DNA of 64,000 bases from a virus: the IMG/VR virus record IMGVR_UViG_3300022890_000011, positions 1 to 64,000 of that record; one strand, given 5' to 3'. Of this stretch, positions 15,195-40,140 are shown one piece after another. Position 1 is the first letter of the stretch. Each line of letters starts with the position of its first letter. The translations under genes were made by a program, and so were the position numbers. The notes under the pieces were generated by a model. That model was not told the DNA's origin. It worked only from the letters and a program-made list of their open reading frames with translations, and ran no database searches.

Positions 15195-15671
15195 ATGAAG
15201 AAAATTGATAAATATTTAGATTTTATTAAAAAAAATTACAAAGATATTGAAAAAAACAAATCTAAGATTAAAAATATTGTAAAAGATAATAATCTTATTA
15301 AGAATGATATTTTAAGCACTAAACAAAAAATAGAAAAATTGTTAATTTCAAAAATTGTAAAATTTAAAGAAAGAATGAAAAACGATCCAAATAATCCAAA
15401 TTATTTATGTATAGTTATTAAAAAACCATTTTCACATTATGATTATAAAGGATATATAGATGTTTCATATTTAAGGGAAACTGGTGGTTTTAGAATTTAT
15501 TTAAATTACGATAAAGGTAATAATTTACATTTATTGTCATTTAATAAAGATATGGAAGTCTATGATGAATTTAATGAAGATGAACAATTAGAATTAATAA
15601 CAAAATTATATAAATACTTTGATGATGATTTAGAACATTACATTGAAGGAAATAAATTGGGATTAATGTAA
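15195..15671 (+). CDS. Doubly tagged protein, 158 aa
   Basis: Starts MKKIDKYLDFIKKN, a looser N-terminal tag, and ends EGNKLGLM. The N-terminal third is a lysine-rich helix or coiled coil; the middle has YLCIVIKKPFSHYDYKGYIDVSYL, likely a beta sheet, and the end is acidic and helical. Function unknown. The next gene starts immediately after its stop. Confidence 0.75.
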   Translation: MKKIDKYLDFIKKNYKDIEKNKSKIKNIVKDNNLIKNDILSTKQKIEKLLISKIVKFKERMKNDPNNPNYLCIVIKKPFSHYDYKGYIDVSYLRETGGFRIYLNYDKGNNLHLLSFNKDMEVYDEFNEDEQLELITKLYKYFDDDLEHYIEGNKLGLM

Positions 15672-16046
15672 ATGAAATATTTAAAAACATATGAAAAATC
15701 TAATTTTGATAATTATCTTGATGAATATCTAAGAACAATATCAAAAGAAAATGATTTTCTTTGCTCATATATTGCAAATAATTTCTATTTTACCATATAT
15801 ACAGAATTAATCTATTCTGAAAGTGATGTTGATTCATCAATTAATATAGGTGAATTAGGTGAATTAAAAAGAATCGAAGACAAATTTCAAAAATTTGTTG
15901 ATAAATATATACCAAAAGATGCATCATGTTCTATTGGTATTGATCCTGATACACCATCAATAGATATGACAATTAATTGTTCTAAAGAAGACTTTATTAC
16001 TAAAAATGCACAACATTTAGAAGCTTATAAAATGGGTTTATTATGA
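15672..16046 (+). CDS. Doubly tagged protein, 124 aa
   Basis: Begins MKYLKTYEKSNFDNYL and ends EAYKMGLL. The middle region is acidic, with alternating hydrophobic strands (YFTIYTELIYS) and a DPDTPSIDMTINC segment. No recognised family. Its TGA overlaps the ATG of the next gene (TTATTATGAAATAT), the junction form shared by several neighbours. Confidence 0.75.
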   Translation: MKYLKTYEKSNFDNYLDEYLRTISKENDFLCSYIANNFYFTIYTELIYSESDVDSSINIGELGELKRIEDKFQKFVDKYIPKDASCSIGIDPDTPSIDMTINCSKEDFITKNAQHLEAYKMGLL

Positions 16047-16681
16047 AATATTTAAAAACATATGAAAATTACGGCAATAACCAACAACCATTTTGGTTAT
16101 CAATTGATAGCTTGTTCATATCAGATGATATAGTAAAAAATTGTATGGCAAAAGAAAAAGATAGAAATAAATCATATAAAAAATATAATAAATATTGGGT
16201 TGATAAATATTTATTTGCTGAATTTGGTTCTAGAAAAATATATCCTTTTACTATTAACAGTGTAAGATGGGATAAAACACCATTTAAAACTGGTGAAGTA
16301 AAAGGTAATCAATCATATAGAATGGATATACGATTTTCTAAATGGCCAGGAGTAGATAATGAAGTAAAAGTAAATAAGGCAGGTACATTTACATATTTTC
16401 TAAATGGAATATCAGGTGATTCCGAAATGTTTGGTAAAAGTATGATTAATGGTACACGATGGGCAAATTATAATTTCATGTGTAAGTTATATCCAATATT
16501 CAGATATGTTAAAAACGGATATAAAAGACTAAAAGAAGGAGAATTGTTCTTAGATATAATATCAGAACTTTTAGACACTAACCCAGAAATGGCAATACAT
16601 GAAGTACCAGAAGAATTAAAAGATAAATATCCAGACTATTATAATACATTTACAAATGCAAATAAATTAGGATTAATATGA
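16043..16681 (+). CDS. Doubly tagged protein, 212 aa
   Basis: Begins MKYLKTYENYGNNQQPFW and ends NANKLGLI. Between the tags it is rich in aromatic and basic residues, with YWVDKYLFAEFGSRKIYPF and a conserved-looking TRWANYNFMCKLYPIFRY segment. I do not recognise a fold. It is the longest of the array's unknown members and overlaps both neighbours by four bases. Confidence 0.75.
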   Translation: MKYLKTYENYGNNQQPFWLSIDSLFISDDIVKNCMAKEKDRNKSYKKYNKYWVDKYLFAEFGSRKIYPFTINSVRWDKTPFKTGEVKGNQSYRMDIRFSKWPGVDNEVKVNKAGTFTYFLNGISGDSEMFGKSMINGTRWANYNFMCKLYPIFRYVKNGYKRLKEGELFLDIISELLDTNPEMAIHEVPEELKDKYPDYYNTFTNANKLGLI

Positions 16682-17061
16682 TATATTTGAAGACATATGA
16701 AAATCATAAAGTTTATAAATATAATGTGATGACTACATTAGAAAATGAATTAAAAGATTTTATTGCAAGAAAAATATCATCTTTTGATGGTATTTTAGAA
16801 GTTGATGATGATATTGAAACAGTTGGAGAATTTAATCAAGACATTAAATATAATTATACAGCATATACGATTGGTGCGAACATAAACACAGATCCATTTC
16901 TTATTGAAGATAAAATTGAAGATTTTTTAAAGAATTTAAAACCCAGTAAATATACAATAACAGACAACGGATTTTGTTATACTATTACTTTTTTAATAAA
17001 AAGATCTGATATTAAATACCTAAAACATGTTATTGAAGGAAATAAATTAGGATTATTATGA
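16678..17061 (+). CDS. Doubly tagged protein, 127 aa
   Basis: Begins MIYLKTYENHKVYK and ends EGNKLGLL. The body is acidic and has alternating strands typical of a small alpha/beta domain (YTAYTIGANINTDPFLI, then YTITDNGFCYTITFLI). No known family. It overlaps both neighbours by ATGA. Confidence 0.75.
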   Translation: MIYLKTYENHKVYKYNVMTTLENELKDFIARKISSFDGILEVDDDIETVGEFNQDIKYNYTAYTIGANINTDPFLIEDKIEDFLKNLKPSKYTITDNGFCYTITFLIKRSDIKYLKHVIEGNKLGLL

Positions 17062-17597
17062 AATATTTGAAGACATATTCAGAAAATAAATTAATTAAAG
17101 ATAATTTAAGTGGTGATGGTAAAATATTAAATTTAGCTGATTTAAATCTAAATGAATTACCTGAACTACCAAAAGGGTTAGAAATATTATATTGTTATAA
17201 TAATAAATTAACTAAATTACCTGAATTACCTGAAGGATTAAAAACATTAAAATGTGATAATAACAAATTAACCGAATTACCTGAATTACCTGAAGGATTA
17301 AAAAGATTATCTTGTCATAATAACCAATTAACTGAATTACCTGAATTACCAAAAGGATTAAAAGAATTATATTGTTATAATAACCAACTAACTGAATTAC
17401 CTGAATTACCTAAAGAATTAATACAATTATATTGTCGTAATAACCAACTAACTGAATTACCTGAATTACCTAAAGAATTAATACAATTATATTGTCGTAA
17501 TAACCAATTACCTTATTATAATTTAGATGGTTATTGGAAATGGTTTTGGAAAGAAAATCCAGATCTTTATAATGCAAATAAAATGGGATTATATTAA
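17058..17597 (+). CDS. Leucine-rich repeat protein of YopM/IpaH type, doubly tagged
   Basis: Begins MKYLKTYSENKL, ends NANKMGLY, and contains about seven LRR units of 20 residues with the pattern NNxLTELPELPxGLxxLxC. This LPELP form is characteristic of the LPX class of repeats found in type III effectors such as YopM and IpaH and in related bacterial surface proteins. The last two full units are identical at the DNA level (about 17385-17504), showing recent repeat duplication. The C-terminal YWKWFWKENPDL segment is shared with a second LRR protein at 18906. It presumably binds a host protein; target unknown. Confidence 0.85.
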   Translation: MKYLKTYSENKLIKDNLSGDGKILNLADLNLNELPELPKGLEILYCYNNKLTKLPELPEGLKTLKCDNNKLTELPELPEGLKRLSCHNNQLTELPELPKGLKELYCYNNQLTELPELPKELIQLYCRNNQLTELPELPKELIQLYCRNNQLPYYNLDGYWKWFWKENPDLYNANKMGLY

Positions 17598-18170
17598 ATG
17601 AAGTATTTAAAGACATATAATCGAATGATAAATGAGATTTCAGTTAATGAGAATCAATATGAAAATACTTTTATACTATATAAAGTGTCTCAATATATTA
17701 AAGATAAATTAGAATTATTTGAAGAAATGTTTAACGAATCAATTATAAATGAAGTTGATGATGATGAAGTTAAAGAACATTTAGATGAATATACTGAATA
17801 TATTGATGAACTAGATCATGATATTGATATTGATGAAATTAGTAGTAAAGAATTAGAAGAAATAATTATTCCAGATGATGTAAAATTCATACATTATGCT
17901 AATTATTCAAATAATTGGCAAATGGAAGAAGAAATGGTTGAACATATATCAGATTGTTTAGTTGATGACGATGTTATAGAATGGGATGATATAGATTACG
18001 AAAAAGATAATGATCCAATAAATGACTTAATTAGAGGTTATATTGGATTATTTGATTATTCTGATTATAAATTTGAAGAGAAATATTCAAATAAAGGAGT
18101 ATATCAAATGGTTAAAAATGACCCTGAATTTATGAAATATGTTGAAGCAAGTAAAATGGGACTATTATGA
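17598..18170 (+). CDS. Doubly tagged acidic protein, 190 aa
   Basis: Begins MKYLKTYNRMINEISVNE (a possible INE cleavage site) and ends EASKMGLL. The body is extremely acidic: runs such as EVDDDEVKEHLDEYTEY and ECDD-like stretches dominate residues 45-150. Such acidity could mimic DNA, or balance positively charged packaged DNA-binding proteins; both are speculation. No family is recognised. It starts directly after the stop of the LRR gene. Confidence 0.75.
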   Translation: MKYLKTYNRMINEISVNENQYENTFILYKVSQYIKDKLELFEEMFNESIINEVDDDEVKEHLDEYTEYIDELDHDIDIDEISSKELEEIIIPDDVKFIHYANYSNNWQMEEEMVEHISDCLVDDDVIEWDDIDYEKDNDPINDLIRGYIGLFDYSDYKFEEKYSNKGVYQMVKNDPEFMKYVEASKMGLL

Positions 18171-18562
18171 AATATATTAAGAAATACAATGAAAAAGATT
18201 TTAGCGATTTTGAAAAATCAATTAATACATTCTTTAAAGATAAAAATATTATAATTGATAATTATAGAAATATAACAATTTTTATTAAAGATTGGGGTGA
18301 AGAAATGGGTGTTACATTTTGTTTAGAAACAAAGATATCTGATGATGATCATTATCCTTTGATTGCTGAAAACACAAATCAACTTACTGATATTATTCAT
18401 AAAGTTGATAAACTTACTAAATTATTACCAACTATATTAAACACTGAAATAAAAATAAGTTATGAAGATTCAGAAATATGGTTTGAATATACTGTAAATG
18501 TTGGTGAATTCATGGAAAAACACAAAGAATATTTTGACTCTGTTAAAATGGGATTATTATAA
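18167..18562 (+). CDS. Doubly tagged protein, 131 aa
   Basis: Begins MKYIKKYNEKDFSDF and ends DSVKMGLL. Residues 30-70 and 85-110 look like beta strands separated by helices (IIIDNYRNITIFIKDWGEE; IKISYEDSEIWFEYTV), a layout similar to the genes at 15672 and 16678. These may therefore be distant paralogues. Function unknown. It overlaps the previous gene by ATGA. Confidence 0.75.
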   Translation: MKYIKKYNEKDFSDFEKSINTFFKDKNIIIDNYRNITIFIKDWGEEMGVTFCLETKISDDDHYPLIAENTNQLTDIIHKVDKLTKLLPTILNTEIKISYEDSEIWFEYTVNVGEFMEKHKEYFDSVKMGLL

Positions 18563-18576
18563 AAATATATAAGATT

Positions 18577-18906
18577 ATGAATAAATATTTAAAAACATTT
18601 GAAGGTTTCCTTAAACCTAAAAATAAATATGCTGATTTAGAAAACCTTTCTAAAAGCAAATATGGAAACGGCAACGTAGATAAATCTACAGAAGAACGTA
18701 TACTAAATATTGACAATTTCAATAGATGGTTTAATGAAGAATGTAAAAGTTTTGGTGGAAAAGGTGAACCAGGCATATTTGGTAGAAGAGATAAACTATC
18801 TCAATCAGTTGTTGAAGATTATTTTTTTGATCAAGGCGTAGAATGTACTGAAACTGAAATAAATGGTTTTCATAAGAAAATTGAAGAAAATTGGATGAAT
18901 CTTTAA
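18577..18906 (+). CDS. Tagged protein, 109 aa
   Basis: Begins MNKYLKTFEGFLKPKNKYADL. The N-terminal tag is present but the C-terminal tag is absent (ends ENWMNL). The body has a glycine-rich middle (KSFGGKGEPGIFGRRDKLSQ) between helices. The start at 18577 leaves a 14-nt gap containing AAATATATAAG. The stop overlaps the start of the second LRR gene. Confidence 0.7.
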   Translation: MNKYLKTFEGFLKPKNKYADLENLSKSKYGNGNVDKSTEERILNIDNFNRWFNEECKSFGGKGEPGIFGRRDKLSQSVVEDYFFDQGVECTETEINGFHKKIEENWMNL

Positions 18907-19322
18907 TGAAATATTTAAAGACATATAATGAAAAAAACGATGTTAAAATTCGAAGTAATGATGGTAAAACATTAGATTTATCTAATTTAGATTTAATTGA
19001 ATTACCTGAATTACCTAAAGGATTAAAATATTTATATTGTGAATATAACCAATTAACTAAATTACCTAAATTACCTGAAGAATTAGTAATATTATATTGT
19101 CATAATAACCAATTAACTAAATTACCTGAATTACCAAAAGGGTTAAAATATTTAGATTGTGATGGTAACAAATTAACTGAATTACCTGAATTACCAAAAG
19201 GGTTAAAATATTTAGATTGTGATGGTAACAAATTACCTTATGATAATTTAGAAGAATATTGGGAATGGTTTTGGAAGGAAAACCCAGACCTTCATAATGC
19301 AAATAAAATGGGACTATATTAA
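18906..19322 (+). CDS. Second LRR protein of YopM/IpaH type, doubly tagged
   Basis: Starting at ATG 18906 (an upstream in-frame ATG at 18891 overlaps the previous gene and is less likely), it begins MKYLKTYNEKND and ends NANKMGLY. About five 20-residue units follow the pattern NQLTKLPELPKGLKYLDC. The last two units are identical in DNA (about 19131-19235). The C-terminal YWEWFWKENPDL matches the paralogue at 17058. Repeat number and surface residues differ, so the two may recognise different partners. Paralogue multiplication and repeat expansion suggest selection for binding diversity. Confidence 0.85.
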   Translation: MKYLKTYNEKNDVKIRSNDGKTLDLSNLDLIELPELPKGLKYLYCEYNQLTKLPKLPEELVILYCHNNQLTKLPELPKGLKYLDCDGNKLTELPELPKGLKYLDCDGNKLPYDNLEEYWEWFWKENPDLHNANKMGLY

Positions 19323-20143: not shown

Positions 20144-21748
20144 ATGATTTTGTCACAATATGTTGAAGTTAAAATTTCTAATAACCAAATCAAATATTAT
20201 ATATTGAAAGGTTATGATGTAAAAGGAAACAATGAAATACGAAAAATAAAAGTATCAGATTTACCATTAAATAGTGGTCAAAAAATAGAAGTTCAATGTG
20301 ATATATGTAGTAATAAAAAAATTATTACAATGAATAGATATCAAATAAATACCAATAATGGTGAAAAATTATATACATGTAGTAGGAAATGTGCTGAATT
20401 TAAAAATAAACAAACATGTTTAGATAATTATGGAGTTGATAACATTTCTAAATTAGAAAGTGTAAAAATTAAAAAAATTGAAACATGTTTAGATAATTAT
20501 GGAGTTGAATTTCCACAACAATCTGAAAAAATATTTGAAAAAAGTAAAAATACAAAGAAATTAAAATATAATGATGAAAATTATAATAATCTTAAAAAAA
20601 GAATTCAAACATGTTTAAATAAATATGGTTGTGTATCACCTTCACAAAATACTAATATTAAAAAGAAAATGAAAATTAATCAATTTGAATCAAACAAAGA
20701 AAAAATATTAGAAAAATATAAAGATTTAAAAATAGTCAATTTTGATAAAGATGATAAATATGTGATTGAATGTGATTGTGATCAAAACCATACTTTCAAT
20801 ATTGAGTATAAATTACTATGGCAAAGAGTAAATGCTAAAACAACTTTATGTACAGTATGCAACGAAATCGATAGAAAACAGTCTGGGTTGGAAATAAACT
20901 TAATTAATTTTATTGAAAAAAACTATAATGGAGAAATTTTAATAGGTGATAGAGATGTTATTAAACCACTAGAATTAGATATTTATCTACCAGATTTAAA
21001 ATTGGCTTTTGAATTCAATGGGTTATATTGGCATAATGAATTAAATAAAGAAAACAATTATCATTTAAATAAAACAGAAAATTGCGTTGAAAAAGACACA
21101 CAACTTATTCATATTTGGGAAGATGATTGGTTATATAAACAACATATAGTAAAGTCAATGATATTAAACAAATTAGGTAATACTCCAACTAAAATATATG
21201 CTAGAAAATGTAAAATTGAAGTCATTCAAGATAACAAATTGATAAGAAATTTTTTGGATGAAAATCACCTTCAAGGTTTTGTTGGTTCAAGTATTAAATT
21301 AGGTCTTTATTATGAAAGAAATCTTGTAAGTTTAATGACTTTTGGAAAATCAAGGAAATCAATGGGCACAACTGCAAAAGAAGGCGATTATGAATTAATA
21401 AGATTTTGTAATAAGTTAAATACCAATGTTATTGGTGGTGCTGGTAAATTATTTAAACATTTCACTAGAAATTATTCTTTTAATGAAATAACATCATATG
21501 CTGACAGATCACATTCAAACGGTAAATTGTATGAAAATTTAGGATTTGAATTTGTTTCAAAAACTAAACCTAATTATTATTACATAATAGAAGGTTTAAG
21601 AAAATATAGGTTTAGTTTTAGAAAAGATATATTAATAAAGGAAGGTTTTGATCCAAATAAAAGTGAACATGAAATAATGTTGGGTAGAGGTATTTATAGA
21701 ATATATAATAGTGGAAATCTAAAATATAAATATAAGAAAGTGATTTAA
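20144..21748 (+). CDS. Hef-like homing endonuclease (Vsr/PD-(D/E)xK type)
   Basis: The 534-aa protein has a Cys4 zinc ribbon (CDIC at 52-55, CSRKC at 79-83), then three copies of a TCLDNYGV-type repeat (around 91, 114 and 156) that serves as a DNA-binding module in phage homing enzymes. A nuclease domain follows with LELDIYLPDLKLAFEFNGLYWH (Asp279, Glu290) and LIHIWEDDW. The C-terminal 200 residues resemble an acyltransferase-like fold (NHLQGFVGSS, LGLYYERNLVSLMTFGK) often fused in this family. It ends tail-to-tail with the split DNA polymerase and is the likely agent of that split. Confidence 0.8.
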   Translation: MILSQYVEVKISNNQIKYYILKGYDVKGNNEIRKIKVSDLPLNSGQKIEVQCDICSNKKIITMNRYQINTNNGEKLYTCSRKCAEFKNKQTCLDNYGVDNISKLESVKIKKIETCLDNYGVEFPQQSEKIFEKSKNTKKLKYNDENYNNLKKRIQTCLNKYGCVSPSQNTNIKKKMKINQFESNKEKILEKYKDLKIVNFDKDDKYVIECDCDQNHTFNIEYKLLWQRVNAKTTLCTVCNEIDRKQSGLEINLINFIEKNYNGEILIGDRDVIKPLELDIYLPDLKLAFEFNGLYWHNELNKENNYHLNKTENCVEKDTQLIHIWEDDWLYKQHIVKSMILNKLGNTPTKIYARKCKIEVIQDNKLIRNFLDENHLQGFVGSSIKLGLYYERNLVSLMTFGKSRKSMGTTAKEGDYELIRFCNKLNTNVIGGAGKLFKHFTRNYSFNEITSYADRSHSNGKLYENLGFEFVSKTKPNYYYIIEGLRKYRFSFRKDILIKEGFDPNKSEHEIMLGRGIYRIYNSGNLKYKYKKVI

Positions 21749-21759
21749 AAATCACTTTC
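21736..21759. terminator. Palindrome spanning both 3' gene ends
   Basis: GAAAGTGAT, a six-base AT spacer, then ATCACTTTC. The two stop codons (homing endonuclease and polymerase fragment) sit in the loop, and each arm encodes the last residues of one protein. It could act as a bidirectional terminator, although the T-tract is weak. Confidence 0.45.
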
Positions 21760-23214
21760 TAATTCTTTTAATTCTTTCTTTAATTCTTCCCATTCAGAAT
21801 GTTTTTGCATCATAATTTTCTTAAAACTTTTACGATCTGCATAAACTTCACCCATAACTTGGTTTACAACACCAATTTCATTTTTAAATACACTTCCATT
21901 TAATAAAACAATATCATCTTTTTCAATTTGTAGTTGATGACCATTAAATAACGTGTAATTTTTTCCTTTAACTTTTTGGCCTTTGTAACTATCAGCAGAT
22001 ATGTTAAATTGTCGAATTGTCATTGGATAAAGTGAGGCGAAATCATAACAACATGTCCATTTTGACATTCCTCTAACAGGTGGTAAAACAAAACCACCAG
22101 ACACACTACCTTCTTTTGCTTTACTTCCATCATCAAAATTATCATCTCTACATAGAACAATATTTTTTTGATCTTTAAGTTTATTTCTTAAAATACCTTC
22201 TGTTATAGCTAACGTAGAGAAACCATTTTGAACAGTTACTTTTGATTTGGTCGCCATCGCATAAAGAATATCAATATATTTTTGTTTTTCGTGTATTAAT
22301 TGAACTAGTACACTATCGACAACATTATAATAAATAAAATCTCTTTTATTCGTATTATATAAATGTTTAAGATCTCCTGTATATGCAACTTTACCAAACT
22401 CTTGACCTAGTATTGCTCCAGCAACAAAATCAAGTGCATTGCTTTCTTTTACTTTTACTGATGTGTCCCATTTTGCATAAAGTTCCATATAATCAACAAT
22501 AATCTTATGAGCTGGCATTTCTGAATAGTCATTTTGTTTCCATGATTCTTTTAATTTGCCTGTTAATGATGCTACTGTAGGATCTATACCGATTTTTCTC
22601 GCTCTATTTACAAGGAATACCCAGTCATAATTTATGAAATTCCATCCTGATATACAAGCCATTACTGGTACATATACTTTAAAAAAATTGAGTAAAAGTT
22701 CATATTCATTATTATAACAAATATATTTGAAACCCCATTTTTTATCAAATTTTTTCCCATATTTAACATTTAAATCATTTTCAATTGAACTTATTTCTTT
22801 TTTAGTGAGTGGGTCTATTCCCAAAACCAATGCTTTATCTTTATTAACGATTGAGATTGAAAGAATTGCTGATTCTGCTAAATGAGGTTCTGGTTTCTTA
22901 TCTAATATTTCGTTTTCTATGTCAACAAAAAATATATTTGGCTCTTTATAATCAAATAATATTGATTGGTCTTCACTGGGAAGAGAACCTAAGAAATCAT
23001 AAACAGCATATTTATTTGGATATTTTGTGTATATTTCTTTAACTGATTTACCATTCCACATTACATATTTTCCAGACTTCTCTTTATCATGGTCTGATGT
23101 TGGTATAAATTTTGTAGGTCTTCCCCACGGGAAGTATTTTAAACGGACATTACCTGCATCATTGATATAGCTACATAACAACTTCGAATTTTTAAATTCA
23201 TAGTCTATAAGCAT
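21745..23214 (-). CDS. Family B DNA polymerase, N-terminal half only (gp43-like)
   Basis: The 489-aa protein holds the exonuclease and the first polymerase motif of a T4-type polymerase: Exo I FFVDIENE (Asp98, Glu100), Exo II NFINYDWVF (Asp197), Exo III YNVVDSVLV (Asp300) and motif A CYDFASLYPMTIRQ (Asp391). It stops after a lysine-rich helix, before motif B (KxxxNSxYG) and motif C (DTDS). No frame elsewhere in the window contains those motifs. Several T4-like phages split gene 43 at this same place with a homing gene in between, and the two subunits assemble. Here the second half must lie elsewhere or be lost. Confidence 0.85.
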   Translation of the reverse strand: MLIDYEFKNSKLLCSYINDAGNVRLKYFPWGRPTKFIPTSDHDKEKSGKYVMWNGKSVKEIYTKYPNKYAVYDFLGSLPSEDQSILFDYKEPNIFFVDIENEILDKKPEPHLAESAILSISIVNKDKALVLGIDPLTKKEISSIENDLNVKYGKKFDKKWGFKYICYNNEYELLLNFFKVYVPVMACISGWNFINYDWVFLVNRARKIGIDPTVASLTGKLKESWKQNDYSEMPAHKIIVDYMELYAKWDTSVKVKESNALDFVAGAILGQEFGKVAYTGDLKHLYNTNKRDFIYYNVVDSVLVQLIHEKQKYIDILYAMATKSKVTVQNGFSTLAITEGILRNKLKDQKNIVLCRDDNFDDGSKAKEGSVSGGFVLPPVRGMSKWTCCYDFASLYPMTIRQFNISADSYKGQKVKGKNYTLFNGHQLQIEKDDIVLLNGSVFKNEIGVVNQVMGEVYADRKSFKKIMMQKHSEWEELKKELKELESDF

Positions 23215-23317: not shown

Positions 23318-24580
23318 ATGAAAAAGTTAGAAAAATTTATAGTTAAAGCCATTAATGTTCATGCTGATAAGTACGATTATAGTTTAGTAGTATATGAAAA
23401 TTCACAAAAGAAAGTTAAAATTATATGTCCTGAACATGGTATTTTCGAACAAAGACCAGCAAATCATAATCGAGGACAGGGTTGTCCTTCTTGTGCAGGT
23501 GTAAAAAGGAACACACAATCAGATTTTATATATAAAGCTTCTGAAGTACATAACAATAAATACGATTATAGTTTAGTGGAATATAAAAACAATAAAACTA
23601 AAATTAAAATTATATGCCATGAACATGGCGTTTTCGAACAGAGGCCTGATAATCATCTAAACAAAAAAACAGGATGTCCTATATGTGCCGATAACCAGTT
23701 ATATTCATCTTGTGAATATATTGAGAAAGCCAAAAAAGTACATGACAATAAATATGATTATTCTTTAGTTATTTATAAAAATGCTAAATCCATGATAAAA
23801 ATTATTTGTCCAGAACACGGCGAATTTAAACAAAAGGCATATTCACATTTAGATGGTATAGGTTGTTCTAAATGTTCAGAAAATTACAATTATTCAACAG
23901 AAGAATATATTGAAAAAGTTAAAAAAGTTCACGGTAATAAATATGATTATTCTTTAGCTGAATATAAAAACAATAAAACTAAGATTAAAATTATTTGTTC
24001 TATTCATGGTATATTTGAACAAAATCCAAAATCACATTTAAATGGACATGGTTGTCAGAAATGTTTTTTTGATGAGAACACAGACAATAAACAAGATTTT
24101 GTTAATAAGTCTAAAAACAAACACGGTAATAAATATGATTATTCTTTAGTTGAATATATAAATAGTTATACAAATGTTAAAATTATATGTCCAAATCATG
24201 GTATATTTGAACAACGACCATCAACACATACCAATGGTGGTGGTTGTTCTTTATGTAAAGAAAGTAAAGGTGAAAGGGAAGTATCTTTATATTTAGATGA
24301 TAAGAATATTAAATATGAAAGGCAAAAGATATTTGAAGATTGTAAAGATGTTAGACATTTACCTTTTGATTTTTATTTACCAAAATATAATATGTGTATA
24401 GAATATGATGGCTTACAACATTTTAAACCTATAGAATTTTTTGGTGGAGAAAAAACTTTTTTATTAACAAAGGAACATGATAGAATTAAGAATGAATATT
24501 GTGAAGATAATGGTATTAAATTAATAAGAATAAAATATAATCAAAAAATTAAAAAACAGTTAAATTTGGTCAAGAATTGA
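23318..24580 (+). CDS. Homing-type endonuclease: DUF723-like repeats plus Vsr-like nuclease
   Basis: The 420-aa protein has five copies of a ~60-residue module with the pattern VHxNKYDYSLVxYKNxxxKIKIICxEHGxFEQ followed by a CxxC pair. These are DNA-binding zinc repeats (DUF723 type). A C-terminal nuclease domain carries LPFDFYLPKYNMCIEYDGLQHF and IKLIRIKY, as in Vsr-like homing enzymes. A close relative with four modules is at 43851-44969. It sits between the polymerase fragment and the mini-AAA gene and has its own TTAATATATA motif. The first residues MKKLEKF are probably only accidentally tag-like. Confidence 0.8.
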   Translation: MKKLEKFIVKAINVHADKYDYSLVVYENSQKKVKIICPEHGIFEQRPANHNRGQGCPSCAGVKRNTQSDFIYKASEVHNNKYDYSLVEYKNNKTKIKIICHEHGVFEQRPDNHLNKKTGCPICADNQLYSSCEYIEKAKKVHDNKYDYSLVIYKNAKSMIKIICPEHGEFKQKAYSHLDGIGCSKCSENYNYSTEEYIEKVKKVHGNKYDYSLAEYKNNKTKIKIICSIHGIFEQNPKSHLNGHGCQKCFFDENTDNKQDFVNKSKNKHGNKYDYSLVEYINSYTNVKIICPNHGIFEQRPSTHTNGGGCSLCKESKGEREVSLYLDDKNIKYERQKIFEDCKDVRHLPFDFYLPKYNMCIEYDGLQHFKPIEFFGGEKTFLLTKEHDRIKNEYCEDNGIKLIRIKYNQKIKKQLNLVKN

Positions 24581-29493: not shown

Positions 29494-30360
29494 TTATTCT
29501 TTTTCTGTTGGTATTTCTGTTGGTATTTCAATATTAGATTCTCCTGTTACATTTGCAGTAATACTACCAGCCCATGTTATAAAATCTGTTTCAATTCTAT
29601 CTTTAACTACATTATATGCGTTATAGATCCTATTTGTATCACCGATTTTTCCTAAAACACCTACAAAGTTTTCAAATGATTTATCAATACCTTTTACTGT
29701 ATGTTTTTGTAAGAAGTGATATAACATTACAATATTTTTAATATCAATTGTTACAGTGAATTCATTTTCCATTTTGTCCATTACTCTAAATGATTGTTGC
29801 CATTTGTCTAGATACGTCTGTTTGAGATCGATTAAATTAAATACTTCATTTCCATCATATTCAATTTTACGTCTAAGAGCTATTTCCATAAAGTTATATT
29901 CATCTCTTGTAAATTTCATATCAAACATTAGATTATTAACCATATCAATATAATTATTCTTTAAAAATTGAGCGATACCATAAATTTTATCTTTTTCTCT
30001 TTCACCTTGTTCACCTTTAGTTTCTATTTCTTTGATATTATCTGAATTAACATCATATTTTTTAACAAATGCGTAGAAATTATTTTTAATTCTATCCATT
30101 TCAGATTGAAACTCTTTTTCTAAATATTCAGGACCGACTTCTAATAAAACTGTTTCAGCCTCATTCTTTTTAAGATTTACTCTTTCAGCTTTAATATTTT
30201 CAATTAATTTATAACTATCATCTAAATTAAAATCATTTTCTTCATCAGTAAAATCATTTTCTAATAATTCATCTAATGGGTCATATTCTACAAATTCAGA
30301 AACAGGTGTATCATCTACTATTTCTAGTTCTTCTATAGAAATTTTATTTTCTTCTTTCAT
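29494..30360 (-). CDS. Hypothetical acidic protein, 288 aa
   Basis: Unrecognised. The first 70 residues are very acidic (EEENDFNLDDS-like), followed by long helices (about 75-230) and a C-terminal PTEIPTEKE tail. It reads toward a strong terminator and follows the 147-aa gene on the same strand. Position next to the probable tail and inner-virion genes suggests a structural or assembly role, but no motif proves it. Confidence 0.65.
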   Translation of the reverse strand: MKEENKISIEELEIVDDTPVSEFVEYDPLDELLENDFTDEENDFNLDDSYKLIENIKAERVNLKKNEAETVLLEVGPEYLEKEFQSEMDRIKNNFYAFVKKYDVNSDNIKEIETKGEQGEREKDKIYGIAQFLKNNYIDMVNNLMFDMKFTRDEYNFMEIALRRKIEYDGNEVFNLIDLKQTYLDKWQQSFRVMDKMENEFTVTIDIKNIVMLYHFLQKHTVKGIDKSFENFVGVLGKIGDTNRIYNAYNVVKDRIETDFITWAGSITANVTGESNIEIPTEIPTEKE

Positions 30361-30377
30361 ATTTTTATTGTATTTTT

Positions 30378-30818
30378 TTAAGATTCTTTATCTTTCTTTT
30401 GACTTTCATATTCTTTTTCAAGAATAATTGCTCTATTTACTTCTTCCCAAGTATATTTATCTATTATAGATGGGTTTGTACTAACTTTTGGTATACCAAG
30501 TTTAAATGTACCTTTATCCAGATTAAAATCAATTCTATCAATTTGAGTTTCGATTATAATTGTTTTAGCTTTATCATCTAAAGTATCAAAATATTCTTCA
30601 CTAACTTGAATCATTATATCTTTACCTATAGCAACCGAATAAGAATCGGGTATTTTAGTTAATTTTAGAAGTTGTTTAAGTTTTGAATTTGATTGATAGT
30701 AAAATTTAATATCAACAGGAAGGTTGAAATTATCAATTATTCCTTCAAAAAATTCAATAATATCACCACCTTTCACATCGTCGCCTTTTACTAATTTTTT
30801 TAAATGTTCTTTTGCCAT
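30378..30818 (-). CDS. Hypothetical protein, about 146 aa
   Basis: The open frame extends upstream to 30932 but overlaps the membrane gene there; ATG 30818 (MAKEHLKKLVKGDD) gives the natural start. The sequence runs through VAIGKDIMIQVSEEYFDTL, KAKTIIIETQIDRI and FNLDKGTFKLGIPK. The arrangement recalls phage proteins annotated as putative metallopeptidases, but the HExxH-type motif is not present here, so I do not assign that function. Confidence 0.6.
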   Translation of the reverse strand: MAKEHLKKLVKGDDVKGGDIIEFFEGIIDNFNLPVDIKFYYQSNSKLKQLLKLTKIPDSYSVAIGKDIMIQVSEEYFDTLDDKAKTIIIETQIDRIDFNLDKGTFKLGIPKVSTNPSIIDKYTWEEVNRAIILEKEYESQKKDKES

Positions 30819-30871
30819 AATTAATTTTTGGTTAATTTTAATTTTATATTTTATTCCAATAATATAGTTTA

Positions 30872-31279
30872 TTAAAAAATTAATAATAATCCTAGAACAA
30901 TTAGTGAAATAATGATGAATGAGTAAATCCATCTTTTTATAATAGTGATTTTTTTACTATTCAAGGTTTTAAATTCGATTATTATTAAGACATTAAAATC
31001 ATCGAGTTGTGATAATTCTGATACTCCTATCATTTCGAATAAACCTATTTCTGAAAAAAATTCTTGAACATCTCTCAAATATGTTCTAACTTGATTATCT
31101 ATATAATAATAACCATATTGTCTAACATTGTCTTGTTCATCGGGTGGGAAATTTAATACTGTATAACACCTATTAATGTTGTCTACTTTCATATTATACT
31201 TCTGAAGAAGAATATCTTTATTCTTCTTTATAAGTTTTTTATACGTTCGGAAATATTTATATTTTTTCCAAAAATTCAT
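30872..31279 (-). CDS. C-terminally anchored membrane protein, 135 aa
   Basis: A basic, charged N-terminal 110 residues (WKKYKYFRTYKKLIKKNKD) precedes one membrane segment at the very end, WIYSFIIISLIVLGLLLIF. The topology is that of a tail-anchored protein facing the cytoplasm. It could be a lysis or inner-membrane effector; no family is recognised. It lies 54 bases downstream of the tape-measure-like gene on the same strand. Confidence 0.65.
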   Translation of the reverse strand: MNFWKKYKYFRTYKKLIKKNKDILLQKYNMKVDNINRCYTVLNFPPDEQDNVRQYGYYYIDNQVRTYLRDVQEFFSEIGLFEMIGVSELSQLDDFNVLIIIEFKTLNSKKITIIKRWIYSFIIISLIVLGLLLIF

Positions 31280-31333
31280 GTTTAGAAAATTACTTTTCTA
31301 TATTTATAAAAAATAGTGAGTCCTGTTTGAAAT

Positions 31334-34300
31334 TTAAGATTTTAATTTCATTTTGGGTTTTTTAAGTTCTTCTTCTTCAACTCTTTTAACTTCTATATTT
31401 TTTTGTTTTTCGCTATTTTCAACCAATTTAGTCATTTTGTCGTCAATGTTCTTAACATGGTCAAGCATTTCTTGCATTGGAGATTTTTTAGTTTGAATTT
31501 CTTCTCCGCCTTCAATTACACCTTTAACACCATCACCAATCCATTCAGTTAAATCACCCAACATTGAAGTGTTTCCTTCATCTGATATAGCTTTTATTGA
31601 TGCACTTTTTTCTTCTATCACATTTAAAGTATTTGCTAATGATTCTTGATCAATAACTGAAATTGTTAATAATGATCCTGATAATTTAGATAAATTTTTA
31701 ATTGATTGTGTTTCTAAGTCATTTACTACATCTCCTAATTCTTCTATTGAAGTAGCTAACATTTTAATTCCTAAAGATACATAATACATATTATTAGGAA
31801 TTCCTGATAGAAAGTTTTTAAGAGAATTACCAAGTTTCATTAATTTTTCTGGTGCTGTATCTGGTATTTTATTAAACATTATACCTGCATATGCAATTCC
31901 AAATGATATACTTGTCATAAATGCTAAAATTTCATCTGGTTTATCAACATCAACATATTCATCCATTTCAGCCATTGATTTGGCAAACATTATAATTGTA
32001 TTACCTACACCCTCAGCCCATTCTTTACTAGGAATTTTAGTATCATCAAAAACACCAAATTGTGATAATATTCTACCAGAAAATGCAATTGCAAACGCAA
32101 TACTAGACATAGAAGCAATAACTTCTTCTGGGTCATCAACATCAATAGTTTCATCCATTTCAGCCATTGATTTAGCAAAAATAGAAATTGCACCACCAAC
32201 ACCTTCTGCCCATGATTTACTAGGAACTTTTGTATCATCAAATGAACCAAATTTATTAAATATTCTACCAACTATAATTAAACCAGCGGCTACACTAACC
32301 ATAGAGCCTATAACTTCTTCTGGATCTTCAACATCAAGTGCCTCGTCCATATCTTTAATAGCAGTACTGAAAGATGCTAAAGAACCACCTACACCTTCAG
32401 CCCATTTCTTACTAGGGACTTTTGTGTCATCAAATTTACCACCATATTTATTAAATACATCCCCTGCTGCAATAATAGCTAATGCTATAATTCTTGTTGC
32501 TCCTATAATTTCACCTGGAGTATCTAGTCCCATATCATCAAAAGCTAATAACGCATTTGAAAATGTTGCAACCGCGGTTCCAACACCATCAGCCCATTTT
32601 TTACTAGGGACTTTAGATTCATCGAAAGCACCTCCACTTCTATTAAATACATTTGCAGCGGTTACTAATGCCAATGATATTGTTATAATAAATTTATTTA
32701 AGTCTACTTTACCGCCTCCAAAGAAACCAGAAAGAAGATCTAAATATGTCATTTGAACTAAGACATCAGAGAAAGTTTTAATTGCTAATGAGACACCAGA
32801 AGCCCAGTCTAATGTAGGGTATTTATCATAATTTCCTCCACCTAATATTTTAGAAGCTTCTACAATAGAAGTTGCGACTATTAACATAGCTGCACCACCT
32901 GCCGCCAACATAGCTAAACCAAATCCAAGTGTAGCAAAGATGAAAACTCCTAATAACATCATACCTGTGCCAAATACTAACATTGATAAACCAACACCAC
33001 CAGACCAATCAGCCGACGGATATTTATCATAACTACCTGCTCCTAAAATGTATGAAGTTGCTGTTATAGTAGCAGCAACAATTACAACAGCCAGTGCACC
33101 TAAAGCCAATGCGATAAAACCTGTACCACCACTAGCAAGTATTAATGCACCAAAAACCAATGTTGCACCACCAAATATTAACATAGATAAACCTACACCA
33201 CCAACCCAATCTAATGATGGATATTTTTCATAATTACCAAATGATATTAACCAACTTGATAACATTATTGCAGCAGATACCATTACTACGGCTAATGCCC
33301 CTAGAGCTATATCTTCTAATTTAACTTTTGATTTAGTTATTAATATAATTGTTGGCATCATTGCTAGTGTGGTCACACCAATAACAACACCAGTTAACAT
33401 TACATCAATTGGATTTTTAATTGGAGCTGTTAATTGTAATATCCAAGACGAAACTACAATACCAGCTGCTATTATTGGTAATACGGCAACTGTTAATAAT
33501 ATATCTTTAGGTGTAACTCCTTTTGTACCTTTTTTAGATGTTAGTTTTTTTAATTTTCCGGATTTATCAAATGATTCTAACACTTTATCATCCATAGTTC
33601 CACCTTTTAAAAGCTTGGCTAACATTAAAACGATTATTGCGGCAGGAGCCATTGCTATTGAAGCAAAAATTACATTTTTCATTGTTTCAAATGTCATTGG
33701 TGCAACTGCACTAAGAATATATGATGATAAAACAATCGCGCTTGCAACTATTGGCATTATAGTTGGTAACATCATCAATGATGCAACAGATTTATTGTCT
33801 AATTTTGTATCTTTTAATCCCCATAATATGAGAGCTACCGCTGCTGACATAGTAACACCAACGGCTACAATTGTTAATAATTCCATAAATCCAATAGTAT
33901 CAACCATATTTAAAAAATATGATGAAGCGAGAATTGCGAGTGCCATTATTGGAAAAATTGATGAAACCATAAGAACCTTTTCGTATGTTAAATCTTTTAT
34001 TGAAGCAACTTCAGCAAAAGCTTTTGCTACCGCTAACATACCTATTCCTAAAGCTATAACAGATAACACATCAACCTTGCCTATTAATTTAAAAGCCATA
34101 CCAATTGCTAATACACCACCAGCTATTAAAACTATTGCTGATATTCCTTCTACTATTTTCTTTTTGTTCTTTGTTTCGCCGACAGTTCCAAACATACCGG
34201 TTTCTTTTCTTTCCTTATCTTGTTCGACTGCTTTTTTTATAGTAGAGACATCAGTTTTCATTTCACCAATTTCTTTTGATTCAGAAATTGCTTTTTTAAC

Positions 34301-34468
34301 TTGATCTGTAATATTACTAAAAACTTCTGTGCTTAGTCCTTCAATTAATTTATCACTAACATCAGTTTCACTTCCTTTTGCTTGTTCTTTTAAAAGTTCA
34401 ACTACACTTTCTAATGATTTAGTAAAATTATCTAATTTTTCTACAAATTCTCTATCTATTTTAGCCAT
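31334..34468 (-). CDS. Tape-measure-like large hydrophobic repeat protein, 1044 aa
   Basis: An N-terminal charged coiled-coil (residues 1-105) is followed by about 15-20 hydrophobic segments of membrane type (110-560), then five or six copies of a ~60-residue unit with FDDTKVPSKKWAEGVGG and AEMDExxDVDDPEEVI, and a charged helical C-terminus. Long proteins combining coiled coils and hydrophobic helices in a phage structural block are usually tail tape measures that also form a channel in the host membrane. No lytic domain is visible. An alternative is an inner-virion ejection protein. It follows the internal-protein-like gene by three bases. Confidence 0.5.
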   Translation of the reverse strand: MAKIDREFVEKLDNFTKSLESVVELLKEQAKGSETDVSDKLIEGLSTEVFSNITDQVKKAISESKEIGEMKTDVSTIKKAVEQDKERKETGMFGTVGETKNKKKIVEGISAIVLIAGGVLAIGMAFKLIGKVDVLSVIALGIGMLAVAKAFAEVASIKDLTYEKVLMVSSIFPIMALAILASSYFLNMVDTIGFMELLTIVAVGVTMSAAVALILWGLKDTKLDNKSVASLMMLPTIMPIVASAIVLSSYILSAVAPMTFETMKNVIFASIAMAPAAIIVLMLAKLLKGGTMDDKVLESFDKSGKLKKLTSKKGTKGVTPKDILLTVAVLPIIAAGIVVSSWILQLTAPIKNPIDVMLTGVVIGVTTLAMMPTIILITKSKVKLEDIALGALAVVMVSAAIMLSSWLISFGNYEKYPSLDWVGGVGLSMLIFGGATLVFGALILASGGTGFIALALGALAVVIVAATITATSYILGAGSYDKYPSADWSGGVGLSMLVFGTGMMLLGVFIFATLGFGLAMLAAGGAAMLIVATSIVEASKILGGGNYDKYPTLDWASGVSLAIKTFSDVLVQMTYLDLLSGFFGGGKVDLNKFIITISLALVTAANVFNRSGGAFDESKVPSKKWADGVGTAVATFSNALLAFDDMGLDTPGEIIGATRIIALAIIAAGDVFNKYGGKFDDTKVPSKKWAEGVGGSLASFSTAIKDMDEALDVEDPEEVIGSMVSVAAGLIIVGRIFNKFGSFDDTKVPSKSWAEGVGGAISIFAKSMAEMDETIDVDDPEEVIASMSSIAFAIAFSGRILSQFGVFDDTKIPSKEWAEGVGNTIIMFAKSMAEMDEYVDVDKPDEILAFMTSISFGIAYAGIMFNKIPDTAPEKLMKLGNSLKNFLSGIPNNMYYVSLGIKMLATSIEELGDVVNDLETQSIKNLSKLSGSLLTISVIDQESLANTLNVIEEKSASIKAISDEGNTSMLGDLTEWIGDGVKGVIEGGEEIQTKKSPMQEMLDHVKNIDDKMTKLVENSEKQKNIEVKRVEEEELKKPKMKLKS

Positions 34469-34471
34469 TTA

Positions 34472-34846
34472 TTATTTCTCATTATCTTTTGTTATATCTT
34501 CTTGTTCTTCTTTTGCAGTACCAATTATTTTATCAAAGTCTTCGATATCTTGTTCAAGTTCATCCATTTTAGGTTCAATATCTTCAGAATCTATACCTTT
34601 TTGAAAGTCTTGTTTAATATCTTTTGTTGTGTCTTCGATTTTTTTACCTTGATCTTCAATTAAATCTGTACTATTTTTTAATTGATCTAATTTATCAGAA
34701 GTTGTATCTGGTTCAACATTTTCAATTTCTTCTGTTTCTTTTGATTTAGATTTTTGTTCTTCTTGATGTTTTTGAATTTTATTAGATAATTCACTTTTGA
34801 ATTCATCTGCGCTTTGTTCATTTAAGAATTCTATATAGGTTTTCAT
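34472..34846 (-). CDS. T4 internal-protein-like coiled coil with capsid-targeting N-terminus
   Basis: The 124-aa protein begins MKTYIEFLNEQSADEF. As I recall it, the T4 internal protein targeting sequence is MKTYQEFIAE, so eight of the ten positions are the same or similar, and LNE is a fitting cleavage site. The rest is a highly charged, low-complexity coiled coil (EEQKSKSKETEEIENVEPD) with no fold signature. Such a composition suits a scaffold core or internal head protein. It carries an upstream TTAATATATAG motif and is followed directly by the tape-measure-like gene. Confidence 0.7.
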   Translation of the reverse strand: MKTYIEFLNEQSADEFKSELSNKIQKHQEEQKSKSKETEEIENVEPDTTSDKLDQLKNSTDLIEDQGKKIEDTTKDIKQDFQKGIDSEDIEPKMDELEQDIEDFDKIIGTAKEEQEDITKDNEK

Positions 34847-34867
34847 ACTTGTTTATAGATTTGAAAC

Positions 34868-34877
34868 TATATATTAA
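34868..34877 (-). promoter_or_regulatory. TTAATATATA motif upstream of internal-protein-like gene
   Basis: Exact copy followed by G on the minus strand, 21 nt upstream of ATG 34846. Confidence 0.55.
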
Positions 34878-34953
34878 AATTAATAATTTAAAAAGAAAGA
34901 TTTTTTATTTAAAAAAATTTTCTTATATTAGGTTGAATTTAAAAAATATAAAT

Positions 34954-35469
34954 ATGAAGCAATCAATTTTATCATTTTACACTTTGGCAATTCTTTTTGG
35001 TTTTTTATTAACTATGGCATTACATTCATGTATTATACCACAATCAGAAGTTGGTGAGAAATTAGATGGTACACATAATTTAAAACAAACATCAGATGGT
35101 TATTATACCTATACTTTCACTAAAGTAGATGATTCGTATGAAATAAATAAAATAAACTTTTTCTGGAAAGATAGTTCTAATACTAATGTTATGACTAGAT
35201 TAAGACAAAGTGATATAAGAATTGAGTTGAATGATACTATTGAAACACCAATGGTTAAATTTAGATGGAATAGCGGTAGTTATGATAATAATTTAGAGAG
35301 ACTTGAAAACCATATTGTATATGCATTAATTATATGTAATGATGAATCGTTACCTGTGATGATTAATAAAATATCTAAATCAAAATATTTAGATTTAATA
35401 AAGGAACCTGAATTATTCTATGAAGCAGATTCAATTTCTAATGAAAAAGAAAATATAATTGAACTGTAA
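34954..35469 (+). CDS. Putative lipoprotein or membrane-anchored secreted protein, 171 aa
   Basis: The open frame begins at 34849, but ATG 34954 gives MKQSILSFYTLAILFGFLLTM-ALHSC. This is a classic signal peptide ending in a lipobox-like LHSC, so the mature protein would start at Cys with a lipid anchor. The mature part is beta-rich and has no known domain. Phage lipoproteins often block superinfection or act in lysis. The lipobox lacks the preferred small residue at -3, so an uncleaved anchor is also possible. Confidence 0.6.
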   Translation: MKQSILSFYTLAILFGFLLTMALHSCIIPQSEVGEKLDGTHNLKQTSDGYYTYTFTKVDDSYEINKINFFWKDSSNTNVMTRLRQSDIRIELNDTIETPMVKFRWNSGSYDNNLERLENHIVYALIICNDESLPVMINKISKSKYLDLIKEPELFYEADSISNEKENIIEL

Positions 35470-35544
35470 ATTACAGAGATAAATTTTTATTTTTTGAAGA
35501 AATTTAGTATATTGATTTAAATAAACCACTAAAAAACAAAAATT

Positions 35545-36207
35545 ATGATAGATTTTAAAGAAATATTTGAAAAAATAGAAAAGAACGAAATGGTTGATAT
35601 TTACTTAGTTGAATCAACTCTGAATTATTTTATAGCTATTGAAGATTATAAAAAATGTATGGTTATTCAAAATCACATTAATTCTAAAGTTAACTCTGGT
35701 TATACAAACGACGAATATGAAATGATTAGAGAAATTGACGAACATAATAAGAAAATTGAATGGTTGGACAAAGAATTTGAAAAATCTTTAAATGGTGAAA
35801 AGGAAAAATATATTGGAAAACCAGGTAGTGAATTGTTTAAATTACATGAAATGATGTATAATTCATTGAGAGATTCTTCAACGAATAAGATTAAAAAATT
35901 ACAATCAAAATTAGATGGTACATTTGATTTTGAAGACGAAAAAAGAAAAGGTAAAGAAACAATGAAAGACTTTTTTGTTAAATGTAAAGGTATGTTAAAC
36001 GAAGAATTTGATAGAAATGTACGTGATTTGTCAAAGAATATACAAAAAGAAAAAGATGATATTGAAACTTTAGAAAAAAGTAAAACGGGAGACAAAAATC
36101 TTGATAGATTGTTAGATGAACATGTATCATCAATTAGAAAAAAGAAAGTTAAACTTGAAGAAGAGTTGTTAGAAATACAAACAATGAAAAATAAAATAAA
36201 CGAATAA
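35545..36207 (+). CDS. Coiled-coil protein, 220 aa
   Basis: No family is firmly recognised. Residues 25-48 (LNYFIAIEDYKKCMVIQNHIN) resemble the UVR helical hairpin of UvrB/UvrC and other proteins. The rest is long charged coiled coil (60-80 and 140-220). It would be cytoplasmic and elongated. It ends directly in a bidirectional terminator. The gene stands alone on the plus strand between minus-strand structural genes. Confidence 0.65.
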   Translation: MIDFKEIFEKIEKNEMVDIYLVESTLNYFIAIEDYKKCMVIQNHINSKVNSGYTNDEYEMIREIDEHNKKIEWLDKEFEKSLNGEKEKYIGKPGSELFKLHEMMYNSLRDSSTNKIKKLQSKLDGTFDFEDEKRKGKETMKDFFVKCKGMLNEEFDRNVRDLSKNIQKEKDDIETLEKSKTGDKNLDRLLDEHVSSIRKKKVKLEEELLEIQTMKNKINE

Positions 36208-36233
36208 AAAAAGAGAGTTTGACTCTCTTTTTT
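36206..36233. terminator. Bidirectional rho-independent terminator
   Basis: AAAAAAGAGAGT, a 3-nt loop, then ACTCTCTTTTTT. The A and T tracts on both sides allow termination of the coiled-coil gene on the plus strand and of the 250-aa gene on the minus strand. Confidence 0.8.
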
Positions 36234-36236
36234 GTT

Positions 36237-36989
36237 TTATTGTTGAGTTTTTATTCCTTGTGGTGTTGTTATTTGTTGTCCTTGTGTTAATTGTTTAGTT
36301 TGTGATTGAACTTGTTGTGATTGAACTCGAACAGTACTTGATTCTTTTGCTATATCCTTAATTTTAGAAAAAATATCACTTTCTTGTGTTTGTTGTGAAT
36401 CTTTAACTGGTAAATCAACATATTGATACAAACTCTTCCAATTTATTCCTATAATACTACCACCAAATGGTTTAAGTGAATTTTTATATGGTTTTCCTTG
36501 AACAGTATTTTCATCAACATCTTGTCCCTGTATATCTAAATTTGTTAATTCAATAATACTTCTATCACCATCTTGATTTTGGTATATGTATGAATTACCA
36601 ACTTTTAGTATATTTTTCCCGGTGCATTGTTTAGGTTGTGATAATTGATCTTTACTTCTACCGACAGGCCCGTTAATTTTACCTTCTTTATTTTTATATT
36701 TCAATTGATAAATATCACCATCAATTTTAACAAGCAATGCTGTAACTTTCATACCCTTATTTTTATAAGTATATAAATTACCTTCTTTAAATTCACTTGT
36801 AGTTGCAGGTAATGTTTGAGTTTGTGGTTGTGATTTTATAGGTAATGTTTGACCCCCTTTATTAATATGTTCTTGTCTTTTAGCTATATTTACTTGTGAT
36901 TGTGACGCACCACTTTTTCCTGATGCTATCTGTGATGTAGCTTCTTTAGCACCTGTATTTTCTTTAATAAAATTACTAAATTTTTTCAT
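36237..36989 (-). CDS. Tagged probable inner-virion protein, 250 aa
   Basis: Begins MKKFSNFIKENTGAKEA, a close match to a T4-type capsid-targeting sequence with a possible cut after IKE. The region after it is Gln/Ser-rich and disordered. Two beta domains follow: FKEGNLYTYKNKGMKVTALLVKIDGD (68-93) and VGNSYIYQNQDGDRSIIEL (130-150). The tail is again Gln-rich. No enzymatic motif. It shares a strand and a 5-nt gap with the 840-aa gene upstream, suggesting an inner-head module. Confidence 0.65.
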   Translation of the reverse strand: MKKFSNFIKENTGAKEATSQIASGKSGASQSQVNIAKRQEHINKGGQTLPIKSQPQTQTLPATTSEFKEGNLYTYKNKGMKVTALLVKIDGDIYQLKYKNKEGKINGPVGRSKDQLSQPKQCTGKNILKVGNSYIYQNQDGDRSIIELTNLDIQGQDVDENTVQGKPYKNSLKPFGGSIIGINWKSLYQYVDLPVKDSQQTQESDIFSKIKDIAKESSTVRVQSQQVQSQTKQLTQGQQITTPQGIKTQQ

Positions 36990-36994
36990 ATTTT

Positions 36995-39517: not shown

Positions 39518-39519
39518 TA

Positions 39520-39906: not shown

Positions 39907-39911
39907 AGTTT

Positions 39912-40058: not shown

Positions 40059-40130
40059 AACTTAATTTCATTTTTTTCTATATATTAAAATACTATGTCG
40101 GATTTTTTAATTTAAAATGAAAATTATATG

Positions 40131-40140
40131 TTAATATATA
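40131..40140 (+). promoter_or_regulatory. TTAATATATA motif upstream of 257-aa gene
   Basis: Exact copy followed by G, 22 nt upstream of ATG 40163. This spacing supports 40163 over an out-of-frame ATG at 40151. Confidence 0.5.

What the first reader, a model, noticed from the sequence alone, without database searches (positions are those of the whole stretch)
20144..23214. DNA polymerase split between motifs A and B, with no second half in the window
The 489-aa polymerase piece ends where several T4-like phages split gene 43, and a homing endonuclease lies tail-to-tail with it. In those phages the other half follows the endonuclease; here the next minus-strand gene is an HD hydrolase and the tagged array. 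Either the C-terminal half is encoded far away and assembles in trans, or the genome was rearranged, or another polymerase does the work.
Basis: partly seen in the sequence, partly recalled or inferred. Interest (0 to 1): 0.78.

Follow-up and report, generated by a model that had tools for sequence, protein, structure and literature searches.

The report
Polymerase front half, partner encoded elsewhere
This is the intact front half of a phage DNA polymerase that a whole lineage of giant bacterial viruses makes as two separate proteins, often from genes 80-280 kb apart; the back half is missing here most likely because the sequenced piece is only a fragment of the genome.

Summary
The 489-aa minus-strand ORF is the N-terminal half of a T4/RB69-type family B DNA polymerase, with exonuclease motifs and motif A intact. 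It stops at the tip of the fingers, and no C-half exists in the 166.6-kb record. The absence has an ordinary cause: the record is a fragment of a Mahaphage-type huge phage and also lacks the gp23-type capsid gene that all five reference relatives carry. All 80 retrieved IMG/VR relatives and all five reference huge phages carry the same stand-alone N-half. All five also carry a C-half gene: 101-281 kb away in the four genomes reported complete and circular, about 10 kb away in the fifth. No polymerase A or Pol III alpha was found in any of them. Trees of the two halves agree (r = 0.957; 0.92 for distant pairs). The break matches Aeromonas phage 25 gp43A/43B, whose halves co-purify and are active. 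So the best reading is an ancient two-gene replicative polymerase assembled in trans. An added finding: in many close relatives the C-half is broken again at motif C by a split intein with nuclease genes, giving a three-piece polymerase. Not decay, and not an assembly error at the break.

The parts
21745..23214 (-). N-terminal half of a family B DNA polymerase (489 aa): N-terminal domain, 3'-5' exonuclease, first part of palm with motif A, first fingers helix
   Evidence: Pfam/PHROG/PDB matches; AF2 model, top PDB match RB69 gp43, E 4.8e-22
22915..22923 (-). Exo I motif, D98-I-E100
   Evidence: invariant in 25 homologues
22624..22641 (-). Exo II motif, N192...D197
   Evidence: invariant in 25 homologues
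22315..22329 (-). Exo III motif, Y296...D300
   Evidence: invariant in 25 homologues
22024..22044 (-). Polymerase motif A, D391-FASLYP397
   Evidence: D391, L395, Y396, P397 invariant in 25 homologues
21751..21870 (-). C-terminal 40-residue helix (first fingers helix); the break is at its end, the tip of the fingers
   Evidence: AF2 helix 449-488; break at Bp7 gp43 residues ~504-514 in the split homologues aligned
20144..21748 (+). homing endonuclease (phrog_3339, DUF7487) abutting the 3' end of the N-half; accessory, in inverted orientation compared with relatives
23318..24580 (+). second homing endonuclease (phrog_559/681) upstream of the N-half, same position and relative orientation as in LR756501 and G005/G001

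Best explanation
This is the N-terminal subunit gene of a two-polypeptide replicative family B DNA polymerase. SHOWN: the same break, at the tip of the fingers, is shared by a large clade of jumbo and huge phages (Mahaphage and related). Every genome reported complete that I checked keeps both halves; in the huge phages the two genes are unlinked. INFERRED: the two halves are translated separately and associate without a covalent bond. The long C-terminal fingers helix of this protein and the N-terminal helix of the C-half would pair as in intact gp43, and motif A (this half) and motifs B and C (other half) would complete one active site next to the exonuclease. INFERRED: this phage's C-half lies on a part of its genome that was not assembled into this 166.6-kb record.
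For: All 80 retrieved IMG/VR relatives carry a stand-alone 465-508-aa N-half. C-halves occur in 5/5 reference huge phages: LR756501 ~115 kb away around the circle, LR756502 132 kb, LR756504 281 kb, LR745206 101 kb, LR756500 about 10 kb; the 634-, 636-, 642- and 735-kb genomes are reported complete and circular (PMC7162821). The window's clade-mates have the C-half 81-115 kb downstream on the opposite strand (G005, G028, LR756501, G035, G036); this record has only 21.7 kb on that side. The record lacks the Gp23 capsid gene found in all five relatives. Trees of the halves agree, r=0.957 (25 taxa, 0/5000 permutations), r=0.92 for the seven far-apart pairs (5/5000). No PolA or PolIII-alpha. Break coincides with Aeromonas phage 25 43A, whose halves co-purify and have polymerase activity (PMC2988022 citing Petrov 2006). 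In the AF2 model of the N-half alone the motif A region is disordered (pLDDT<50, residues 361-399), as expected if the palm needs the other half. No intein and no Rfam intron at this break.
Against: The window phage's own C-half has not been seen. Gene order around the N-half is rearranged relative to its relatives, so its position cannot be predicted firmly. No biochemical data exist for this clade's halves that I found. An AF2 model of a lone C-half was poor (pTM 0.38), and a complex was not modelled. The low-confidence motif A region could also reflect a shallow alignment.
Confidence: 0.88

Rival explanations
1. The N-half is a decayed or redundant remnant and another polymerase replicates the genome.
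For: No C-half in the record. Iyer et al. report a minimal split Pol III alpha in some group 2.2 jumbo phages (PMC7824862).
Against: The exonuclease and motif A catalytic residues are invariant across 25 diverse N-halves; the N-half is kept in hundreds of relatives with a co-evolving C-half; PolA and PolIII-alpha absent from G000 and five relatives. The PF07733 search might miss the minimal Pol III form.
Confidence: 0.03
2. The split or the missing half is an assembly artefact at 20-21.7 kb.
For: The downstream endonuclease is inverted relative to its closest relatives L028 and G005/L029, so a local inversion or mis-join next to the gene is possible.
Against: The ORF ends at the same alignment position as in 80 independent contigs and curated genomes.
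Confidence: 0.02
3. The halves are joined covalently, by a split intein or by RNA trans-splicing, at the fingers break.
For: Split inteins and endonucleases are common in this clade's polymerase, but at motif C.
Against: The N-half ends in a helix with no intein-N segment, C-halves begin with helix or TPR-like sequence, and no Rfam intron lies at either flank.
Confidence: 0.04
4. The neighbouring endonuclease split the gene here recently, as a local event like seg43 in Aeromonas phage 25.
For: Endonucleases of the same family abut the N-half in G005/G001, LR756500, Lak-A2 and, decayed, L028.
Against: The split clade is one group (100/100 support, 31 rows) and most of the members inspected have no endonuclease there. 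An ancient endonuclease origin remains possible.
Confidence: 0.03

Closest known systems
Split gene 43 (43A/43B) of Aeromonas phages 25 and 44RR
   Same: Break at the same place in the fingers (phage 25); an endonuclease gene lies at the break in phage 25; phage 25 halves shown to co-purify with polymerase activity (PMC2988022)
   Different: In phage 25 the halves are neighbours separated by one endonuclease gene; phylogenetically an independent split inside the T4-like branch. Here the split is clade-wide and the genes can be >100 kb apart on opposite strands
Annotated split polymerases of Sphingomonas phage PAU (gp105/gp110), Tenacibaculum phage pT24 (gp165/gp168), Chryseobacterium phage MA9V-2; PHROG 2062 (N) and PHROG 1918 (C)
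   Same: Same family, same break
   Different: Halves 1-4 kb apart on one strand; the window's clade has them 81-115 kb apart on opposite strands
Fractured polymerases with split inteins, e.g. PolB16 OarG intein (GDTD|Ser1, Ser+1)
   Same: Relatives' C-halves (G005, G030, LR756500, Lak-A2) are interrupted at DTD|S by split intein parts, in most with endonuclease-like genes between; PolB16 trans-splices in vitro at such a site (PMC10189870)
   Different: Not at the break in this window, which carries no intein
Split archaeal PolB (Nanoarchaeum equitans, Methanothermobacter)
   Same: Family B polymerase encoded by two separate genes (own knowledge; not tested here)
   Different: Cellular, different lineage; the Nanoarchaeum halves are joined by a split intein (own knowledge)

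Membership tests
Family B DNA polymerase, T4/RB69 gp43-like | 3'-5' exonuclease motifs Exo I, II and III | tested here: met
   D98/E100, N192/D197, Y296/D300 invariant
Family B DNA polymerase, T4/RB69 gp43-like | Motif A (DxxSLYP) | tested here: met
   DFASLYP at 391-397
Family B DNA polymerase, T4/RB69 gp43-like | Motifs B and C (KxxxNSxYG, DTDS) | tested here: inconclusive
   Absent from this protein and record; present in the separate C-half of the relatives aligned
Family B DNA polymerase, T4/RB69 gp43-like | Fold | tested here: met
   Model matches RB69 gp43, E 4.8e-22, TM-score 0.66 over the query
Split PolB of jumbo/huge phages (PHROG 2062 N-half) | Stand-alone N-half of about 465-515 aa ending at the fingers tip | tested here: met
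   PHROG 2062 5-498/502; break position
Split PolB of jumbo/huge phages (PHROG 2062 N-half) | A partner C-half gene in the same genome | tested here: inconclusive
   Not in the 166.6-kb record, which is incomplete; present in all five reference relatives
Split PolB of jumbo/huge phages (PHROG 2062 N-half) | Halves associate and polymerise DNA | not testable with these tools
   Precedent only: phage 25 43A/43B (PMC2988022)
Fractured gene with split intein | Intein N/C segments at the break | tested here: not met
   No intein at the N-half end; inteins occur only at motif C of relatives' C-halves

The most novel reading that the evidence does not exclude
The replicative polymerase of this phage is a three-piece enzyme: this N-half docks non-covalently onto a C-half that must itself first be made from two further polypeptides by split-intein trans-splicing at the catalytic motif C, with the genes dispersed over ~100 kb. 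Assembly in trans and trans-splicing would then jointly gate replication in huge phages.
Probability: 0.35. Interest if true: 0.72.

Novelty: new variant of a known kind. Interest (0 to 1): 0.5.

Why it matters
Splitting the main replicative polymerase of a virus once, then keeping the two halves for a whole clade while moving their genes 80-280 kb apart, makes an essential enzyme depend on co-expression of unlinked genes. It gives a natural series (adjacent, a few genes apart, dispersed, and re-fractured by an intein) for studying how multi-gene enzymes arise from one-gene enzymes, and a practical warning: full-length polymerase searches and fragment contigs will misread these phages as lacking a polymerase. 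Cultured members (PAU, pT24, MA9V-2) make it directly testable.

Tried and rejected
C-half search in the own record with two profiles: nothing. PolA and PolIII-alpha as substitutes: nothing. Extending the record by its end sequence in IMG/VR: no match. Synteny with G005 and LR756501 to place the missing half: homologous blocks found but rearranged, so no firm placement. Intron or intein joining at the break: no evidence. First mirror-tree run used a wrong protein for G028 and was discarded (corrected). Literature searches for a report of this dispersal found none; the library lacks most subscription journals. A 2025 preprint on Jug phages reports polymerase genes split by endonucleases (PMC12363816).

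Full report
Observation. The minus-strand ORF 21745-23214 (489 aa) is the N-terminal half of a T4/RB69-type family B polymerase. It matches the exonuclease domain and only the first third of the DNA_pol_B domain, PHROG 2062 from end to end (profile of 502 positions) and the front of the full-length polymerase PHROG 262, and aligns with RB69 gp43 up to residue 502. The catalytic residues of all three exonuclease motifs and motif A are intact and invariant in 25 homologues. The predicted structure (21-row alignment, mean pLDDT 79) matches RB69 gp43 best (E 4.8e-22, TM-score 0.66 of the query) and ends in a 40-residue helix, residues 449-488. By comparison with RB69 gp43 this is the first fingers helix, so the protein stops at the tip of the fingers (domain limits are from general knowledge).

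The missing half. Neither a full-length profile nor a C-half profile finds a second half in the whole 166,601-bp record of which the window is the first 64 kb. The full-length profile finds C-halves in all five relatives, so it is sensitive enough. The record is a fragment: its nearest phage-database relatives are uncultured huge phages of 462-735 kb, and it lacks the Gp23 major capsid family that all five of them carry. Al-Shayeb et al. report the 634-, 636-, 642- and 735-kb genomes as complete and circular and place the largest genomes and the Lak phages in one clade, Mahaphage (PMC7162821).

The split is natural and clade-wide. All 80 IMG/VR loci retrieved with the N-half encode it as a stand-alone ORF of 465-508 aa, as do the five huge phages, Prevotella phage Lak-A2, Sphingomonas phage PAU, Tenacibaculum phage pT24 and Chryseobacterium phage MA9V-2. 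Mapped on Escherichia phage Bp7 gp43, the break falls at residues ~504-514 where it can be placed, and Aeromonas phage 25 43A ends at 512. In the tree the 31 split sequences form one group with full support, while Aeromonas 25 sits with the unsplit T4-like Bp7; so the same spot was broken independently there, and, most simply, once and early in this clade.

Where the other half is. In LR756501, LR756502, LR756504 and LR745206 the C-half gene is 115 (around the circle), 132, 281 and 101 kb from the N-half; in LR756500 it is about 10 kb away. In the window's own subclade (G005, G028, G035, G036, LR756501) it lies 81-115 kb downstream of the N-half on the opposite strand. This record has only 21.7 kb on that side. 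Large contigs with just one half are common: G001 (256 kb) has only the N-half; G038, G040 and G041 (308-348 kb) have only the C-half. Gene order is rearranged between the window and its relatives, so the exact place in this phage is not predicted. In smaller jumbo phages the halves are 4-7 kb apart in one operon-like row: N-half, nrdB-like, nrdA-like, a clamp-like gene, C-half, uvsX-like and dnaB-like genes (the names of the neighbours are read from the sequences, not searched).

Do the halves work together? Trees of N- and C-halves from 25 genomes agree (r=0.957, 0 of 5000 label permutations as high); the seven genomes with far-apart halves alone give r=0.92 (5 of 5000). No PolA or PolIII-alpha family is found in the record or the five relatives, so this is the only replicative polymerase detected. 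In the lone N-half model the motif A region is disordered. Phage 25 43A and 43B, broken at the same place, co-purify and have polymerase activity (PMC2988022). There is no intein at this break and no Rfam intron nearby. The most likely mechanism is therefore non-covalent assembly of two separately translated subunits. That step is inferred for this clade.

A second break in relatives. In G005 (58% identical N-half) the C-half is two ORFs: one ends ...YGDTD followed by an intein N segment (Pfam Intein_splicing, above cut-off); the other starts with the intein C end ...VHN|SLYISF. Between them lie two other ORFs, one resembling an endonuclease by eye. The same break occurs in LR756500, Lak-A2, G008, G030 and other contigs, while G035/G036, 94% identical to G005 in this region, are uninterrupted, so the insertion is polymorphic. 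The PolB16 OarG split intein from sheep gut, with the extein SGDTD and Ser at both junctions, trans-splices in vitro (PMC10189870). Whether the window's phage has it is unknown; C-halves with about the identity to G005 expected of the window's (L208, L209/L212, L210/G030; 62-63%) all have it, which is why the three-piece case gets a probability of 0.35.

The endonucleases. The gene abutting the N-half (20144-21748) is 50% identical to the one that follows the N-half in G005/G001, and a decayed copy follows the N-half in L028; both run in the same direction as the polymerase, while the window's copy is inverted. Endonucleases of this family also follow the N-half in LR756500 and Lak-A2. Most of the members inspected have none there, so they mark the break rather than explain it, although an endonuclease may have made the original split.

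Verdict. Observation confirmed; 'encoded far away and assembled in trans' is the best reading; the absence of the partner in the record is explained by truncation. The split is known at annotation level (separate PHROG families; PAU), with an experimental precedent in Aeromonas phage 25; the dispersal over ~100 kb and the polymorphic re-fracturing by a split intein were not found described in the papers searched.

Noticed in passing
window 15195-19322: Row of plus-strand genes starting MKYLKTYE.. and ending ..KMGLL/KLGLI/KMGLY (LPELPK-repeat and unrelated middles); the MK(Y/H)LKxF/Y start also occurs on other genes of the window and of LR745206, LR756502, L036.
   Followed up: partly
L145:1930-3615, L017:784-2484, L143:1695-2810: C-halves of the LR756501/G028/G030 group begin with a TPR-like helical extension before the fingers helix (weak TPR_2 hit in L145 only, below cut-off; extra helices in the model): a possible docking piece at the break.
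   Followed up: partly
window 20144-21748: Endonuclease gene inverted relative to its orthologues in L028 (decayed) and G005/L029, where it runs with the polymerase.
   Followed up: partly
L007:15374-19545 (LR756500): The gene following the endonuclease after the N-half looks like a ribonucleotide reductase that runs into an intein-like segment, so this phage seems to have more than one intein-broken gene.
   Followed up: no
L150:4850-4918 and 6763-6831: Two tRNA matches with identical scores 1.9 kb apart downstream of the N-half in G005.
   Followed up: no
L155:2980-6569 (Vibrio phage V6Aob): A 98.7-kb Vibrio phage outside the clade also has a split polymerase at the same spot, and its annotated 326-aa C-half starts after motif B, suggesting a further break or intron.
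   Followed up: no
window 29494-45721 and 55544-59140: Blocks homologous to LR756501 14-36 kb and 53-60 kb and (first block) G005 68-78 kb, in a different order relative to the polymerase gene.
   Followed up: partly
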